NCBI GenBank assembly: GCA_944324345.1
Contig: CALUVT010000001.1
Span: 558,001 to 622,000 of the forward strand
Direction: 5' to 3'
Source: Candidatus Gastranaerophilales bacterium
GTDB taxonomy: Bacteria; Cyanobacteriota; Vampirovibrionia; Gastranaerophilales; Gastranaerophilaceae
DNA: 64,000 bases
Position 1 is the stretch's first letter, and every line of letters begins with the position of its first letter. The position numbers were made by a program, and so were the translations under genes. The notes below the pieces were generated by a model. The model searched no databases and was not told where the DNA came from. It worked only from the letters and a program-made list of their open reading frames with translations. Of this stretch, positions 32,976-59,921 are shown piece after piece.

Positions 32976-33776
32976 ATGATAAGTAGTGTGAAAATGATAA
33001 ATCTTAATCCAAATTATCTGGGGTTAAAGCCTGCCGGTTTAAATTGTCAAAAGCCGGATTGCAAAAGTGTTGAAACTTCAATATACAACACAAAGTCTTC
33101 AAATGTTTGGTTTGGAGGGGCTTTAAGGTTTAAAAATCCTCTGGAAGAGGAGTGTGCTCAGTTTTTAAGAAAAGTGAGAGAAAAACGTTGCAGAAAATTT
33201 ACGGATTTTGATATCTCAGAAATGCTGAATTCTCTGCAAAAGGAAAATGAGCCTTCAAATAGAAAAACTTTGCTGGAGGAGATTTTTTATATTAAGCCTG
33301 ATCAAAGCGGGAATGTCCCTGATAGTGCGTTTTACAAACGCTTATTAAATATGATATCCGGTAGGCCGGAAGATGAAAGATATTCTATTCTTGAGTTTGC
33401 ACAGTACGAATTTGACCGTGTAAAGAATCCTATTTTATCGCTATCGAAATTACCGGAGGATAAACAGAATAAACTTGTAAAAATTTTAAAGAAGATTAAT
33501 GATGTTGATTATATGTATTGTGAAAATTCCGGTAAATGCAAACGTTATAATCCTGAAGTACTGTATGATATTTTTAGAACTCTTGTCTCTGCGGAAGAAG
33601 ATCTTGTAAAACTTGGTAAGCAGGAAGCTGATTCTTACAAAATTGAAACATTTCATATCCTTAAATCAGATAGAGAGTATCTAAAAAAAATTCCTTGTAG
33701 TGATGCTAATGTAAAACAAAAGGAAAAAATAGCTTTTGATAGTATGATGGAATATCTGCTAGAAAATATTCTTTAA
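32976..33776 (+). CDS. Protein of unknown function (266 aa)
   Basis: Not recognised. The first 55 residues look flexible (Asn/Pro/Ser-rich, with C-x4-C at NCQKPDCKS) and end in a NVWFGGALRF segment. The remainder is mostly helical and charged, with LLEEIFYIKPDQ and KLPEDKQNKLVKILKKI stretches. There is no signal peptide or transmembrane helix. The SD is GGAATT-like and weak. It lies between two terminators and appears to be a single-gene unit. Confidence 0.65.
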   Translation: MISSVKMINLNPNYLGLKPAGLNCQKPDCKSVETSIYNTKSSNVWFGGALRFKNPLEEECAQFLRKVREKRCRKFTDFDISEMLNSLQKENEPSNRKTLLEEIFYIKPDQSGNVPDSAFYKRLLNMISGRPEDERYSILEFAQYEFDRVKNPILSLSKLPEDKQNKLVKILKKINDVDYMYCENSGKCKRYNPEVLYDIFRTLVSAEEDLVKLGKQEADSYKIETFHILKSDREYLKKIPCSDANVKQKEKIAFDSMMEYLLENIL

Positions 33777-46796: not shown

Positions 46797-49097
46797 ATGG
46801 CGAAAACTGCAGAAAAAAAAGAAAAAGCTTTAGTAATTGTAGAGTCACCTGCAAAATCAAAAACAATAAAGAAGATTTTGGGTGACAGTTATCAGATAGA
46901 AGCGAGTTTCGGGCATGTTAGGAATTTGCCGACAAAAGATCCTTCAACAGAGAATTTGGGGTTTGATATAAGTAATCATTTTACCCCGAAGTTCGAAGTA
47001 ATTCCCGGTAAGCAGGCTGTTGTTAAGAAGTTAAATGAACTTGCCAAAAAGGCTGATAAAATCTATCTTGCATCAGACCCTGATAGGGAAGGGGAAGCGA
47101 TTGCTTGGCATGTTCGCCAAATTTTGAATGTTCCTGATGACAAAATTATGAGGATTGTATTTAACGAAATTACACCAAAAGCCGTAAAACATTCAGTTGA
47201 GAATCCTCGTGCTATAGATATGGATATGGTTCAGGCACAGCAAACAAGACAAATTCTCGATAAGCTTGTGGGTTATAAGCTCAGTCCCGTCTTGTGGAAA
47301 CAAATCGGGAATAGAAATTTATCTGCAGGGCGTGTTCAATCCGTGGCTCTTAGAATGATTTGTGAAAGAGAAGAGGAAATAGAGGCTTTTGTCCCTCAGG
47401 AATACTGGTCAATCCATGCTGATATGGAAAAAGACGGTAAGATCTTTGAAGCAGAACTTTCTAAAATTAAGGATAAAGCTGTTGAAAAAACTATTAAAAA
47501 CCAAGAAGAAGCTCAAAAGATAGTTGATTACCTTCAAGAACCCTCAAGAGAGTTTGAAGTCGTAAAAGTGAACAAAAAGACTATGAAAAGGAAACCTACA
47601 GCTCCTTTTATAACTTCAACCATGCAAAGGGCAGCAAGTTCAAAGTTAGGCTTTGGAGTCCAAAAGACTATGCAGGTGGCCCAAAAACTTTATGAAGGTA
47701 TAGAAATTGACGGCACTCCTGTCGGTTTGATTACTTACATGAGAACAGATAGTGTAAGGGTTTCTGATGATGCTCAGGAAATGGCAAAGAACTTTATTGT
47801 TTCCAACTATGGTGAAAAATATTACCCCGAGTCTCCAAATATTTATGCAAAGGGTAAACAAAACGTTCAAGATGCTCACGAGGCTATCAGACCTTCCTAT
47901 CCTGAAAGAACCCCTGATAGTATAAAGAAATATTTGGATACTGATCAATATAAACTTTATAAACTTATTTGGGATAAATTTATGTCATCTCAAATGGCAA
48001 ATGCTGAAATCGCAAATAAATCAATTGAAATAAAGGCAGGAGATTATACTCTCAAGGCCGGAACAAGCAAGATTACGTTTGATGGCTTTTTGAAACTTTA
48101 CAACGATGCGGATGATGAAGAAAAAAATTCGGATGCAAAAATTCCTGATCTAGAAAAAGGTGACAAAATTAATTGTAAAAAGGTTAACCCAAAACAGCAC
48201 TTCACTCAGCCTCCGCCAAGATATAATGAAGCTTCTCTGGTTAAGGCGTTGGAAGAATACGGTATTGGTCGTCCATCAACTTATGCAACAATTATTACTG
48301 TGATTCAAACAAGAAAATATGTAGAAAAAAAAGATAAAGCTTTACATCCTACACTATTAGGCAGGACAGTTTCAAAACAGCTTGTTGCACAATTTGCAGA
48401 TATTATGGATTACAAATTTACGGCCGGGATGGAAACTAAGCTAGATAAAATCGCAGAGAAAAAAGCTGTCTGGAATGATGTTTTGCAAGAGTTTTATACA
48501 CCATTTATTCAGGAGGTAAATAAGGCACTTCAAAATAATGAGCGTGTAAAAATCGAAAGCAAAATAAAATGTCCAAATTGTGGTAAACCGATGGTTTTGA
48601 GAATAGGGAAGAATGGATCACAATTTTTGGGCTGCTCAGGTTTCCCAGATTGTAAAACAATGATGTCATTAAATGCACTGTCAGAACAAACAGATGATGA
48701 GCAATCTACAGAGCAAGAAGTTTGTGAGGAAAAGTGTGAGAAATGCAATTCTCCTATGGTATTTAAGACAGGCCCCTACGGAAAATATATGGAATGTACC
48801 AACGAAAATTGCAAACACAGAAAGCCATACAGGAAATCAACTAATGTCAAATGCCCAAAATGTGGAGAAGGCACTATAGTTGAACGCAAATCAAAACGTG
48901 GGACTGTCTTTTACGGCTGCGATCGTTATCCTAATTGTGATTTTACTTTGTGGAATGAACCAACAGGCGAAAAATGTCCTCAGTGCGGAGCATTATTGGT
49001 TAAAAAAATTCTAAAAAAAGGTGATGTTATAGCCTGTTCAAATATGAAATGTAATTATAAAAAAGAATTGACTGGAGATGGTGCAGATGAATCCTGA
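46797..49097 (+). CDS. topA: DNA topoisomerase I
   Basis: 766 aa type IA topoisomerase that relaxes negative supercoils. The Toprim domain has ALVIVESPAKSKTIKKIL and ASDPDREGEAIAWH; the active-site tyrosine lies in GLITYMRTDSVRVS; DAHEAIRP and GRPSTYATIITV follow. The C terminus has four C4 zinc ribbons (CPNCGKPM, CEKCNSPM, CPKCGEGT, CPQCGALL). TATAAA lies directly before the ATG and no clear SD is seen. Its end overlaps aroE. Confidence 0.97.
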   Translation: MAKTAEKKEKALVIVESPAKSKTIKKILGDSYQIEASFGHVRNLPTKDPSTENLGFDISNHFTPKFEVIPGKQAVVKKLNELAKKADKIYLASDPDREGEAIAWHVRQILNVPDDKIMRIVFNEITPKAVKHSVENPRAIDMDMVQAQQTRQILDKLVGYKLSPVLWKQIGNRNLSAGRVQSVALRMICEREEEIEAFVPQEYWSIHADMEKDGKIFEAELSKIKDKAVEKTIKNQEEAQKIVDYLQEPSREFEVVKVNKKTMKRKPTAPFITSTMQRAASSKLGFGVQKTMQVAQKLYEGIEIDGTPVGLITYMRTDSVRVSDDAQEMAKNFIVSNYGEKYYPESPNIYAKGKQNVQDAHEAIRPSYPERTPDSIKKYLDTDQYKLYKLIWDKFMSSQMANAEIANKSIEIKAGDYTLKAGTSKITFDGFLKLYNDADDEEKNSDAKIPDLEKGDKINCKKVNPKQHFTQPPPRYNEASLVKALEEYGIGRPSTYATIITVIQTRKYVEKKDKALHPTLLGRTVSKQLVAQFADIMDYKFTAGMETKLDKIAEKKAVWNDVLQEFYTPFIQEVNKALQNNERVKIESKIKCPNCGKPMVLRIGKNGSQFLGCSGFPDCKTMMSLNALSEQTDDEQSTEQEVCEEKCEKCNSPMVFKTGPYGKYMECTNENCKHRKPYRKSTNVKCPKCGEGTIVERKSKRGTVFYGCDRYPNCDFTLWNEPTGEKCPQCGALLVKKILKKGDVIACSNMKCNYKKELTGDGADES

Positions 49098-50337
49098 GCT
49101 TTATGAAAGATATCTTGCTAAAAAAGCTAAAAAACTTGGAATTTCCGTGGAAGAGTTAAAAGCTCAGGGGAGTCCTTCTCCTGTTAGTGAAGCAAAATCA
49201 GAAGACCAAACAACTTTCAAATCTTCTGTTTCTTCCGAGCCTCAATATGTTCAACGTACAATTCAAGAACAAATTGAAGCTACGTCACATTCGGGAGAAC
49301 CTGCTAATTCTGAAATCGCTAACAGAACTGTAGAACCTGCGGAACCTTTATATAAACCATATTCCGGAATGCAGCCTGAAACAGTTAAAACGGAGGTACC
49401 TTCTTATATTTTTGGACCTTCTAGAATAGAAGAGCCAAAAGTTAGTAGTGTTAGTGCGGCCAATGATTTAGGAATGCCTGAAATAAAAGATACAAGGGAG
49501 AACAAATTTGGTCTTATCGGTTATCCTCTCGGTCATTCTCTTTCAAAGATTATCCATGAAGCCGGTTTTAAGAGTCTAGGCATAGAGGCAAGTTACGATG
49601 TTTTGGAAACACCTCCGGATAGTCTTGTTGATAGGATAAAATGGTTAAAAACGAACGGTTATAGAGGGTTTAATGTTACAATTCCGTTAAAACTCCCTGT
49701 TTCTTTGTTTGTAAATGAAGTTGATAAATATGCTGATCTTGCCCGTGCAGTAAATACTGTTTATATAGATTCGGATAAAACTCTAAAGGCCTACAATACA
49801 GATGTTATAGGTTTTAGAAGAGCAATCCCTTCAGATATAAATTTAAAAGGGAAAAAGGTCGCAATTTTGGGTACCGGTGGGGCGGCTCATGCGGCTTGTG
49901 TTGCTTTAACAGAGTGCAATGTTGAAGAAATTGCATTTTTTACTCGCAATATTCCAAATTCAATAGAATTAATGAATTATGTCAGAAGGAAATTTCCTTC
50001 TGTCAATTTTAATGTCTACCAAATTGAGAATATTAGGCATTTAGGCGAGTATTCTATGCTTGTTAATACAACTCCTATCGGGATGCTCGGAAAGTCCGGT
50101 GATATGATGCCGGTTGAAGAATTTGCACTTAAAACTTTAAATCCTGATGCTGTTGTTTATGATGTTATATACAATCCAAAAAAGACTGTCCTAATAAGAG
50201 CCGCTGAAAGTTTAAATTTAAGGACAATTACTGGATTAGATATGCTTATCTTCCAAGCTGTGGCCGCTCAAGAAATTTGGTTCGGCAAAACTCCTGATTG
50301 GAAAGATATGAAAATAGCAGCTTTAGAGGTTTTATAA
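49087..50337 (+). CDS. aroE: Shikimate dehydrogenase with N-terminal extension
   Basis: 416 aa, about 140 longer than usual AroE. The C-terminal part (from about 140, KFGLIGYPLGHSLSKIIHEA) is complete: NVTIPLK with the catalytic Lys, ARAVNTVY, YNTDVIGF with the catalytic Asp, the NADP loop ILGTGGAAHA and GLDMLIFQAVAAQEIWFG. The first 26 residues (MNPELYERYLAKKAKKLGIS) form a basic helix; residues about 30-135 are Ser/Pro/Glu-rich and probably disordered. GGAG at 49074-49077 fits the ATG at 49087 better than the ATG at 49078; either overlaps topA. Confidence 0.93.
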   Translation: MNPELYERYLAKKAKKLGISVEELKAQGSPSPVSEAKSEDQTTFKSSVSSEPQYVQRTIQEQIEATSHSGEPANSEIANRTVEPAEPLYKPYSGMQPETVKTEVPSYIFGPSRIEEPKVSSVSAANDLGMPEIKDTRENKFGLIGYPLGHSLSKIIHEAGFKSLGIEASYDVLETPPDSLVDRIKWLKTNGYRGFNVTIPLKLPVSLFVNEVDKYADLARAVNTVYIDSDKTLKAYNTDVIGFRRAIPSDINLKGKKVAILGTGGAAHAACVALTECNVEEIAFFTRNIPNSIELMNYVRRKFPSVNFNVYQIENIRHLGEYSMLVNTTPIGMLGKSGDMMPVEEFALKTLNPDAVVYDVIYNPKKTVLIRAAESLNLRTITGLDMLIFQAVAAQEIWFGKTPDWKDMKIAALEVL

Positions 50338-58718: not shown

Positions 58719-59684
58719 ATGTTAGGTAATGTAAATTTAACTCAGTATGAAAGATGTTATCCTTCTCGTTTGAAGAAGCTTTTTCGTTCAAACTTAAATT
58801 ACCGCACATATGATGAATTTATTCCGCATATGAAAAATGCTGTTGTCGGAAATATTCCGCCGGAAATAATAAAGTTGTTTCAAACAAATAAAGGGGAGAA
58901 AATAAAAGCTTTTCAAGCAGCCCTTTCAACTTTGACCAAATATATAAGAGGGTTTTATAGGTATGCGAAAAAACAAAATTTAATATATTATAGTTTTAAA
59001 GATTTGAGGGGAAAACTACCTATATTTGAGCAGAGTTTATCTGATTTTGCAAACAAACATTTTGAAGGGATACTTCCTCAAGGAGTTAGAGCTGAACTTA
59101 AATATGTAGGAAAAGGTGCTTGGGGAAATGTTTTTAGCTTTTCTTTAAGAAATGCCGAAAATGAAAAAATTATGCATGATAAAGCATTAAAAGTTTACCA
59201 TAATGTAAAAAGTCCGATTGAAAGGCTGTCTTCGATACAAAACAACTATGCGGAAGCAAATTTTTGGACATATTTAAAATTCATGGCTGGTCACAAACTC
59301 GATAAAACTCAATTTACTAAACACTATATTTCGGATTTAAAAAGCGGTTATGCCATGACGGAATTGATAGATGATACTATTCCAGAAACGACTGCACAGT
59401 TGAATCTTCGCAAAATTATAAGAGTTAAGTATTCAGATTTTATGAATACACCTATAAATAAAAAGCTATACGACGGAGGCGGTTTCATTAAGAGACTTGA
59501 GTTTATCGAAGATAGACTGGTTCTCCGTTATTTCAAACAGCTTTGGTTTAGAAATTCAAAAAAAGAACTTGACAAGGTTATAAAAGCCTTTGAAGCAAAA
59601 ATCGCAAACCCCAAAACTCCTCATAGAGACAAAATTCAAGAAGCTTTGAGATTATTTAAACAAAAACAAGATATAAATGAGTAA
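58719..59684 (+). CDS. Protein-kinase-N-lobe-like protein of unknown function
   Basis: 321 aa, family not recognised. Residues about 130-195 resemble a kinase N lobe: a glycine-rich loop VGKGAWGNVFSF, a VAIK-like lysine in KALKVYHN, an alpha-C-like NNYAEANFWTYLKF with Glu, and a hinge-like GYAMTELIDD (about 223-232). After the hinge no HRD/HxD catalytic loop is seen; a DGGGF (about 255-259) is the only DFG-like segment. Residues 1-125 are basic and helical. There is no signal peptide. Likely a pseudokinase or a distant kinase-like fold. TATAAA lies 4 nt before the ATG and no SD is seen. Its 3' end overlaps yggT by 33 bp. Confidence 0.6.
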   Translation: MLGNVNLTQYERCYPSRLKKLFRSNLNYRTYDEFIPHMKNAVVGNIPPEIIKLFQTNKGEKIKAFQAALSTLTKYIRGFYRYAKKQNLIYYSFKDLRGKLPIFEQSLSDFANKHFEGILPQGVRAELKYVGKGAWGNVFSFSLRNAENEKIMHDKALKVYHNVKSPIERLSSIQNNYAEANFWTYLKFMAGHKLDKTQFTKHYISDLKSGYAMTELIDDTIPETTAQLNLRKIIRVKYSDFMNTPINKKLYDGGGFIKRLEFIEDRLVLRYFKQLWFRNSKKELDKVIKAFEAKIANPKTPHRDKIQEALRLFKQKQDINE

Positions 59685-59921
59685 ATAATTCAAAATTTGC
59701 AATGCAATAACCGCAATAATTGGAGAAAAATCCAACCCCCCAATTGGCGGTACAATCCTACGGAAAATATCTAAATACAAATCAGTAACATCTTTCAATC
59801 CCGTGAAAGGCTGTTTATACCAGTCAATACTCGGCACAAAACTCAACAAACACCTCACAAGTATTAGCCAAAAATATAATTGAAAGAAGCTGTTTACAAC
59901 AAAAATCAGATTATTAATCAT
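59652..59921 (-). CDS. YggT family membrane protein
   Basis: 89 aa with two hydrophobic helices (FVVNSFFQLYFWLILVRCLL and PIIAVIALQILNYLLIYILF) around a conserved loop with TDLYLDIFRRIVPPIGGLDFSP, the YggT signature (given in part). The function is not firmly known; cyanobacterial and plastid homologues are tied to membrane/nucleoid organisation. Lies 12 bp downstream of mtnP and is probably co-transcribed with it. Confidence 0.9.
   Translation of the reverse strand: MINNLIFVVNSFFQLYFWLILVRCLLSFVPSIDWYKQPFTGLKDVTDLYLDIFRRIVPPIGGLDFSPIIAVIALQILNYLLIYILFLFK

What the first reader, a model, noticed from the sequence alone, without database searches (positions are those of the whole stretch)
58719..59684. 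Kinase-like N lobe without a visible catalytic loop
A glycine-rich loop (GKGAWGNVF), a VAIK-type lysine (ALKVY), an alpha-C Glu and a hinge-like segment are followed by no HxD loop. With a basic helical N-terminal region, it resembles a pseudokinase or a shortened effector-type kinase. In a gut or host-associated bacterium this could be a regulatory or secreted effector protein; secretion is not shown by sequence.
Basis: partly seen in the sequence, partly recalled or inferred. Interest (0 to 1): 0.55.

Follow-up and report, generated by a model that had tools for sequence, protein, structure and literature searches.

The report
Stripped-down kinase-like protein of gut bacteria
The gene makes a small, fast-changing protein that appears to share the fold of kinases (enzymes that move phosphate groups), from a family so far found only in a gut-dwelling, non-photosynthetic sister group of cyanobacteria; it keeps the key active-site residues but seems to lack much of a normal kinase body.

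Summary
The 321-aa ORF (58719-59684, +) is a real gene: 22 of 33 genomes of its genus carry a full-length ortholog, mostly between TrkA and YggT/MTAP, under purifying selection. Organism: Ca. Gastranaerophilales (titles). "No HxD" is literally true but misleading: a degenerate loop, Y238-S-D240-F-M-N243, and D252-x-G254 are present; E179, D240, D252 and G254 are identical in 35 of 35 aligned orthologs. Relatives in the same order spell the loop out (HTDLKPRN, GDLHAGN), one at the same locus in a congener. Kinase homology rests on a profile-profile match (90%, P 1.7e-6; controls), weak Pfam hits of relatives, and models whose structural neighbours are kinases, each hit weak alone. The models lack alphaD/alphaE and a matched C-lobe. 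"Pseudokinase" is unproven; "secreted effector" has no support for this gene. Best reading: a minimal kinase-like protein, probably ATP/Mg-binding, of a new lineage-restricted family.

The parts
58719..59684 (+). Kinase-like gene, 321 aa
   Evidence: 22 of 33 genus genomes have a full-length ortholog; dN/dS 0.10-0.25 in the 9 of 10 pairs where it could be computed
58770..59060 (+). N-terminal helical domain, residues 18-114, with family-wide invariant G44 in VGNIPxE
   Evidence: AlphaFold model; G44 invariant in A2 and A3
59109..59135 (+). Glycine-rich loop GKGAWGNVF, residues 131-139, joining beta1 and beta2
   Evidence: strands 124-132 and 136-144; G133 35/35
59184..59198 (+). beta3 with VAIK-type lysine K158 (ALKVY, residues 156-160)
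   Evidence: strand 155-160; K in 28, H in 4, Q in 3 of 35 distinct orthologs
59244..59288 (+). alpha-C helix, residues 176-190, with Glu E179
   Evidence: E179 35/35 orthologs and 58/58 aligned other family members
59349..59372 (+). beta5 and hinge-like segment, residues 211-218
   Evidence: strand 211-215; aligns with the kinase hinge in hhalign
59430..59447 (+). Degenerate catalytic loop YSDFMN, residues 238-243 (D240 in the place of the HxD aspartate)
   Evidence: D240 35/35; GDLHAGN/HTDLKPRN in relatives in the same columns; hhalign places it on HRD
59472..59483 (+). DFG-like DGGG, residues 252-255
   Evidence: D252 and G254 35/35; in other family members D 47 of 48, G 48 of 48 aligned
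59514..59678 (+). Three C-terminal helices within residues 266-320, with conserved NPKTPHRDKI, in place of a canonical C-lobe
   Evidence: the corresponding part of the L068 core is not spanned by the listed structures

Best explanation
A chromosomal, vertically inherited member of a new protein-kinase-like (PKL) family restricted, as far as searched, to the order Gastranaerophilales. An N-terminal helical domain is fused to a minimal kinase core: five-stranded N-lobe, alpha-C, hinge, a shortened catalytic loop (YxDxxN) and DxGG, then three helices of its own instead of the usual C-lobe. Most likely it binds ATP with Mg through K158/E179, N243 and D252 and transfers phosphate, with D240 as the catalytic aspartate, to a cytosolic substrate (protein or small molecule) that is not known. 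Shown: gene, conservation, kinase homology of the family, motif register, predicted fold. Inferred: nucleotide binding, catalysis, cytosolic location, substrate class.
For: Family profile (100 rows) vs cyanobacterial Pkinase alignment (23 of 30 loci): hhalign 90.0%, P 1.7e-6, 137 columns from glycine loop past DFG with motifs in register; 4 unrelated families P >= 0.21 and 10 column shuffles P >= 0.3. Catalytic residues invariant and near-invariant family-wide. Relatives with canonical loops, including L022 at the same locus. Pfam FTA2 (a PKL family) hits of relatives, 8.2e-7 and 1.5e-6, one genome at Pfam's cut-off. All 50 listed VIA rows for each of the two models are kinase-fold chains (a few chain identities recalled). 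A3 profile vs PDB sequences: 17 of 21 hits are kinases, best E 0.025.
Against: No fold hit is significant alone: 0 of 751 and 0 of 824 Foldseek matches at E <= 0.001, best Z 7.3 and 7.5, under the tool's caution line of 8. The ortholog profile alone reaches only 9.6%, P 0.0034. K158 is lost in 7 of 35 and N243 in 6 of 35 orthologs. No helix in the place of alphaE. No Pfam, NCBIfam or PDB sequence hit for the protein itself. The gene is decayed in one congener, so it is dispensable there.
Confidence: 0.55

Rival explanations
1. Pseudokinase: a kinase-fold scaffold or nucleotide sensor without phosphotransfer, acting through its N-terminal helical domain.
For: K158 replaced in 7 of 35 orthologs, N243 in 6 of 35; catalytic loop shortened; no alphaE and no C-lobe matched; faster evolution than its neighbours.
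Against: E179, D240 and D252 are kept in 35 of 35; the window protein itself has a candidate at all five positions.
Confidence: 0.3
2. Kinase fold with another chemistry, such as AMPylation or glutamylation, as in SelO and SidJ (named in passages of PMC10870513).
For: Non-canonical loop and missing C-lobe; precedent in the literature.
Against: Nothing in the sequence points to it specifically; D240 is kept.
Confidence: 0.1
3. Secreted effector kinase acting on host cells.
For: Gut lineage; faster evolution than neighbours; minimal kinases SteC and OspG are effectors (passages of PMC13395416); longer paralogs carry a recurrent N-terminal SFxGLTK-like leader, 19 of 30 vs 4 of 204 other ORFs.
Against: The window protein lacks that leader; conserved chromosomal synteny; no phage or plasmid match.
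Confidence: 0.08
4. Not a kinase relative: a chance run of kinase-like motifs.
For: Individual fold and family hits are weak or absent.
Against: Profile-profile result with controls, canonical loops in relatives, consistent kinase neighbours of two models.
Confidence: 0.03

Closest known systems
Hanks-type protein kinases (Pfam PF00069 Pkinase)
   Same: Glycine loop, beta3 lysine, alpha-C Glu, hinge, catalytic Asp and DxG align in register.
   Different: No HRD histidine, loop shortened, alphaD-alphaE gap, no canonical C-lobe; no Pfam hit for the protein; PF00069 not found in the own genome.
FTA2 (Pfam PF13095), listed among kinase-like families in PMC9758233 (passage)
   Same: Distant members of this family match it (8.2e-7, 1.5e-6), one genome at Pfam's cut-off, mostly over the N-lobe.
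   Different: The window protein gives no FTA2 hit and FTA2 is not among the 25 families shown for its orthologs; Pfam describes FTA2 as a kinetochore subunit.
Minimal effector kinases SteC and OspG (passages of PMC13395416)
   Same: Depleted C-lobe and non-classical HRD; SteC also has an N-terminal regulatory domain.
   Different: Those are injected effectors; no sequence link was tested (not fetched) and none is claimed.
Novel Legionella PKL families (PMC9758233, passages)
   Same: Divergent kinase-like families found by profile methods.
   Different: Different lineage; no sequence comparison made here.

Membership tests
Protein kinase-like (PKL) superfamily | Glycine-rich loop between beta1 and beta2 | tested here: met
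   residues 131-139, strands 124-132 and 136-144; G133 35/35
Protein kinase-like (PKL) superfamily | beta3 Lys and alpha-C Glu | tested here: met
   K158 and E179 in the window protein; E179 35/35, K158 28/35 orthologs
Protein kinase-like (PKL) superfamily | Catalytic Asp and Asn (HxDxxxxN) | tested here: inconclusive
   D240 35/35 but spacing is YxDxxN and N243 is in 29/35; canonical in relatives
Protein kinase-like (PKL) superfamily | DFG-type metal-binding Asp | tested here: met
   D252-x-G254 35/35
Protein kinase-like (PKL) superfamily | Bilobal fold with helical C-lobe | tested here: inconclusive
   N-lobe to DxG matched by kinase chains in 50 of 50 rows for the L068 core; most rows stop before the later helices; best Z 7.5
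Pfam PF00069 Pkinase | Score above the curated cut-off | tested here: not met
   no hit for the protein; none in own genome
Pfam PF13095 FTA2 | Score above the curated cut-off | tested here: not met
   no hit for the window protein; 1 of 146 genomes in the order reaches it
Pseudokinase | Loss of one or more catalytic residues | tested here: inconclusive
   candidates for all five residues present in the window protein; lysine lost in 7 of 35 orthologs
Active phosphotransferase | ATP binding and phosphate transfer | not testable with these tools
   needs biochemistry
Secreted effector kinase | Translocation into a host cell | not testable with these tools
   only context was available: synteny, no phage or plasmid match

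The most novel reading that the evidence does not exclude
An active kinase built without alphaD, alphaE and a canonical C-lobe, in which the co-conserved N-terminal helical domain (family-wide invariant G44) does the structural work of the missing C-lobe, as part of a diversified kinase-like family that serves a lineage with almost no Hanks-type kinases.
Probability: 0.2. Interest if true: 0.75.

Novelty: new variant of a known kind. Interest (0 to 1): 0.48.

Why it matters
It adds a kinase-like family that none of the libraries searched names (Pfam, NCBIfam, PHROGs, PADLOC), in gut bacteria known mostly from metagenomes. Hanks kinases were found at E <= 1e-10 in 1 of 14 genomes of its taxonomic family but in 25 of 25 other sampled genomes of the phylum, so this family (105 of 192 genomes of the order) may fill part of that gap. 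If active, it would show how little of the kinase C-lobe catalysis needs; the series from HTDLKPRN to YxDxxN within one lineage makes that testable.

Tried and rejected
Direct family look-ups of the window protein: Pfam, PDB by sequence, NCBIfam, PADLOC: no hit; PHROGs: 3 weak hits, best E 0.039, taken as chance. Pfam scan of all 35 members of A2: no kinase family among the 25 shown of 34; best unrelated E 0.0042, taken as chance.

Single-protein scan of genome contigs: none of 20 stretches confirmed; the alignment scan gave 35 loci. Viral contigs: none of 59 stretches. Phages and plasmids: no match at E 0.01. Phylum-wide search: 77 of 292 genomes, all in the own order; the output does not say how many of the 292 lie outside it.

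APH (PF01636) profile comparison gave 0.1%, but on 7 usable sequences of 28 loci and a poor alignment, so it is inconclusive, not a rejection. Reversed-alignment controls: four pairs with one profile reversed, 0.1-0.2%; two pairs with both reversed, 2.4% and 10.5%, which keep part of the relation and are not a true null.

Permutation of the C-lobe to the N-terminus: not testable, no model coordinates were at hand. Secretion: literature listings gave nothing on effectors of this order that I could use. Searches listed no paper that by title or start of abstract describes this family; passages were read of PMC9758233, PMC13395416 and PMC10870513 only, the rest were seen only as listings.

Full report
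What was checked. The ORF at 58719-59684 (+) encodes 321 aa. The window lies in G000:C1:558001-622000 of a 1.76 Mb, 99.93% complete genome; its nearest named relatives are Candidatus Gastranaerophilales MAGs (titles). Its 3' end overlaps the convergent 89-aa ORF 59652-59921 (YggT-like, a name I recall, not from a call) by 33 bases. The neighbour names TrkA, TrkH, MTAP, SLT and PepT are likewise my reading of the sequences, not the result of a family search.

It is a real gene. In 58 relatives 29 had a match at E <= 0.01; counting rows below 1e-90, 22 of the 33 genomes of its genus, own included, carry a full-length ortholog at 48-71% identity. In 20 of 20 loci L001-L020 and 27 of 34 loci L037-L070 it sits between TrkA and YggT/MTAP (the two sets share genomes). 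dN/dS against 10 orthologs was 0.10-0.25 in the 9 pairs where it could be computed, against 0.015-0.046 for TrkA and MTAP where computable; dS is near saturation, so these are rough. In G010 the locus keeps TrkA and YggT but only a C-terminal remnant with a stop.

The motifs. The catalytic loop was missed: Y238-S-D240-F-M-N243, then D252-G-G254-G255. In A2 (window plus 34 loci; the remnant L071 dropped) F22, G44, G133, E179, N181, G191, H192, D206, D240, D252, G254, D265, N297, K299, P301, H302 and K305 are invariant. K158 is Q in three and H in four; N243 is N in 29 of 35 (the set of 35 orthologs there was picked by locus number). That PKA has YRD for HRD is recalled, not from a call.

The wider family. 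A profile of 29 sequences (A3; invariant G44, G133, E179, N181, D240, D252, G254) matched 105 of 192 genomes of the order, 30 of 45 genera, in proteins of up to 2277 aa. In the phylum sample 77 of 292 genomes matched, all in the order. From 138 ORF hits, 95 distinct, the motif columns were read: L122 HTDLKPRN, L107 HTDMGQRN, L034 HTDESVAN, L022 GDLHAGN, L068 ADFHAGN, L128 SDNHPAN. Outside the orthologs, of 60 ORFs, E179 is kept in 58 of 58 aligned, K158 in 53 of 58, D240 in 44 of 49, D252 in 47 of 48, G254 in 48 of 48 (ORFs with a gap in the column left out). A distant subset (L102, L103, L104, L106, L109, L116, L117) aligns poorly or not at all past the hinge. L022 stands at the same TrkA-YggT-MTAP locus in the congener G013 and groups with L070 and L068 (supports 0.87, 0.91), with the window's clade only at weak support (0.28), so the loop may have degenerated in the window's clade, or the locus content may have been replaced.

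Homology to kinases. hhalign of the 100-row family alignment against 23 cyanobacterial Pkinase domains (23 of 30 fetched loci had the motif used to cut the domain): 90.0%, P 1.7e-6, 137 columns, glycine loop to beyond DFG, with the family's D on HRD and DxGG on DFG, and a gap where alphaD and alphaE would be. TrkH, TrkA, MTAP and PepT profiles: at most 0.3%, P >= 0.21; ten column shuffles: at most 0.2%. The ortholog-only profile: 9.6%, P 0.0034. Pfam: L139 and L123 hit FTA2 at 8.2e-7 and 1.5e-6, L124 at 1.1e-3, L107 Pkinase at 0.0076 (20 proteins given), all under the cut-offs; in genomes, 5 of 146 match FTA2 at 0.001 and one reaches the cut-off. FTA2 is treated as a kinase-like family in PMC9758233 (passage).

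Structure. AlphaFold on A2: pLDDT 89.3, pTM 0.84; beta1 124-132, beta2 136-144, beta3 155-160, alphaC 176-190, beta4 202-206, beta5 211-215, a five-residue helix 230-234, strands 236-238 and 256-258, helices 266-276, 281-296, 303-320. No helix of the length of alphaE lies between beta5 and the catalytic loop. Foldseek PDB: 0 of 751 at E <= 0.001; best PI3K-delta, 0.015; 42 of 50 listed rows are kinase-superfamily entries by title, 8 are not. VIA: 50 of 50 rows kinase-fold (PI3K, VPS34, APH(2''), and pre-40S chain z and MSMEG_1954, whose kinase identity I recall), best Z 7.3. BFVD: best an iridovirus Ser/Thr kinase, 0.018, mixed below. For the core of L068, chosen for its canonical loop: pLDDT 83.5, pTM 0.66; 0 of 824 at E <= 0.001, 50 of 50 listed rows kinases; VIA 50 of 50 kinases (some chain identities recalled), best Z 7.5, with residues 1-164, up to and just past D157-x-G159, as the part spanned by a fifth or more of the rows; a few rows such as Bud32 reach residue 226. 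These Z values are inside the range that models without a clear match reach, so the weight lies in their uniformity and in the sequence profiles, not in any single hit.

Function. The best conserved residues are those that in kinases bind nucleotide and metal and act in catalysis, which favours an ATP/Mg site and perhaps transfer. The lost lysine in 7 of 35 orthologs and the missing C-lobe leave a pseudokinase open. [quoted passage not shown] it was not fetched or compared. The gene stands alone between convergent and divergent neighbours, so no substrate can be read from context.

Novelty. None of the libraries searched names the family; seven paper searches listed nothing that describes it. 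New kinase-like families in bacteria are an established kind: KINtaro holds 72 families (passage of PMC10870513). Hence new variant of a known kind.

Noticed in passing
L021, L023-L025, L027-L029, L031, L033, L035, L097, L099, L101, L135-L138, L140, L141 (first 100 residues of the family ORF): Longer family members carry a recurrent leader of the type SFxGLTKxxKK: 19 of 30 members of 440 aa or more, 4 of 204 other ORFs of 300 aa or more (members are related, so not independent). It could be a targeting or export tag; the window protein lacks it.
   Followed up: partly
L121:1053-5427: Four family members lie in tandem in one genome (G105), with different catalytic loops.
   Followed up: no
L119:894-7724, L120:3053-6274: A kinase-like core of this family is embedded in proteins of 2277 and 1074 aa with no strong Pfam hit.
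   Followed up: no
L023, L026, L134: Weak HEAT-repeat matches follow the kinase-like core (best 5.5e-6, under the cut-off).
   Followed up: no
order-wide (genomes): Pkinase (PF00069) at E <= 1e-10 in 1 of 14 genomes of the own family but 25 of 25 other sampled genomes of the phylum.
   Followed up: no
L032 (G010:C4), L071: At the same locus a congener keeps only a C-terminal remnant of the gene, with a stop.
   Followed up: partly
window 32976-33776: 266-aa ORF without a Pfam hit whose N-terminal part has a similar WFGG stretch.
   Followed up: partly
window 49078-50337: 419-aa shikimate dehydrogenase-like ORF whose Pfam match starts only at residue 146: a long N-terminal extension or a wrong start.
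   Followed up: no
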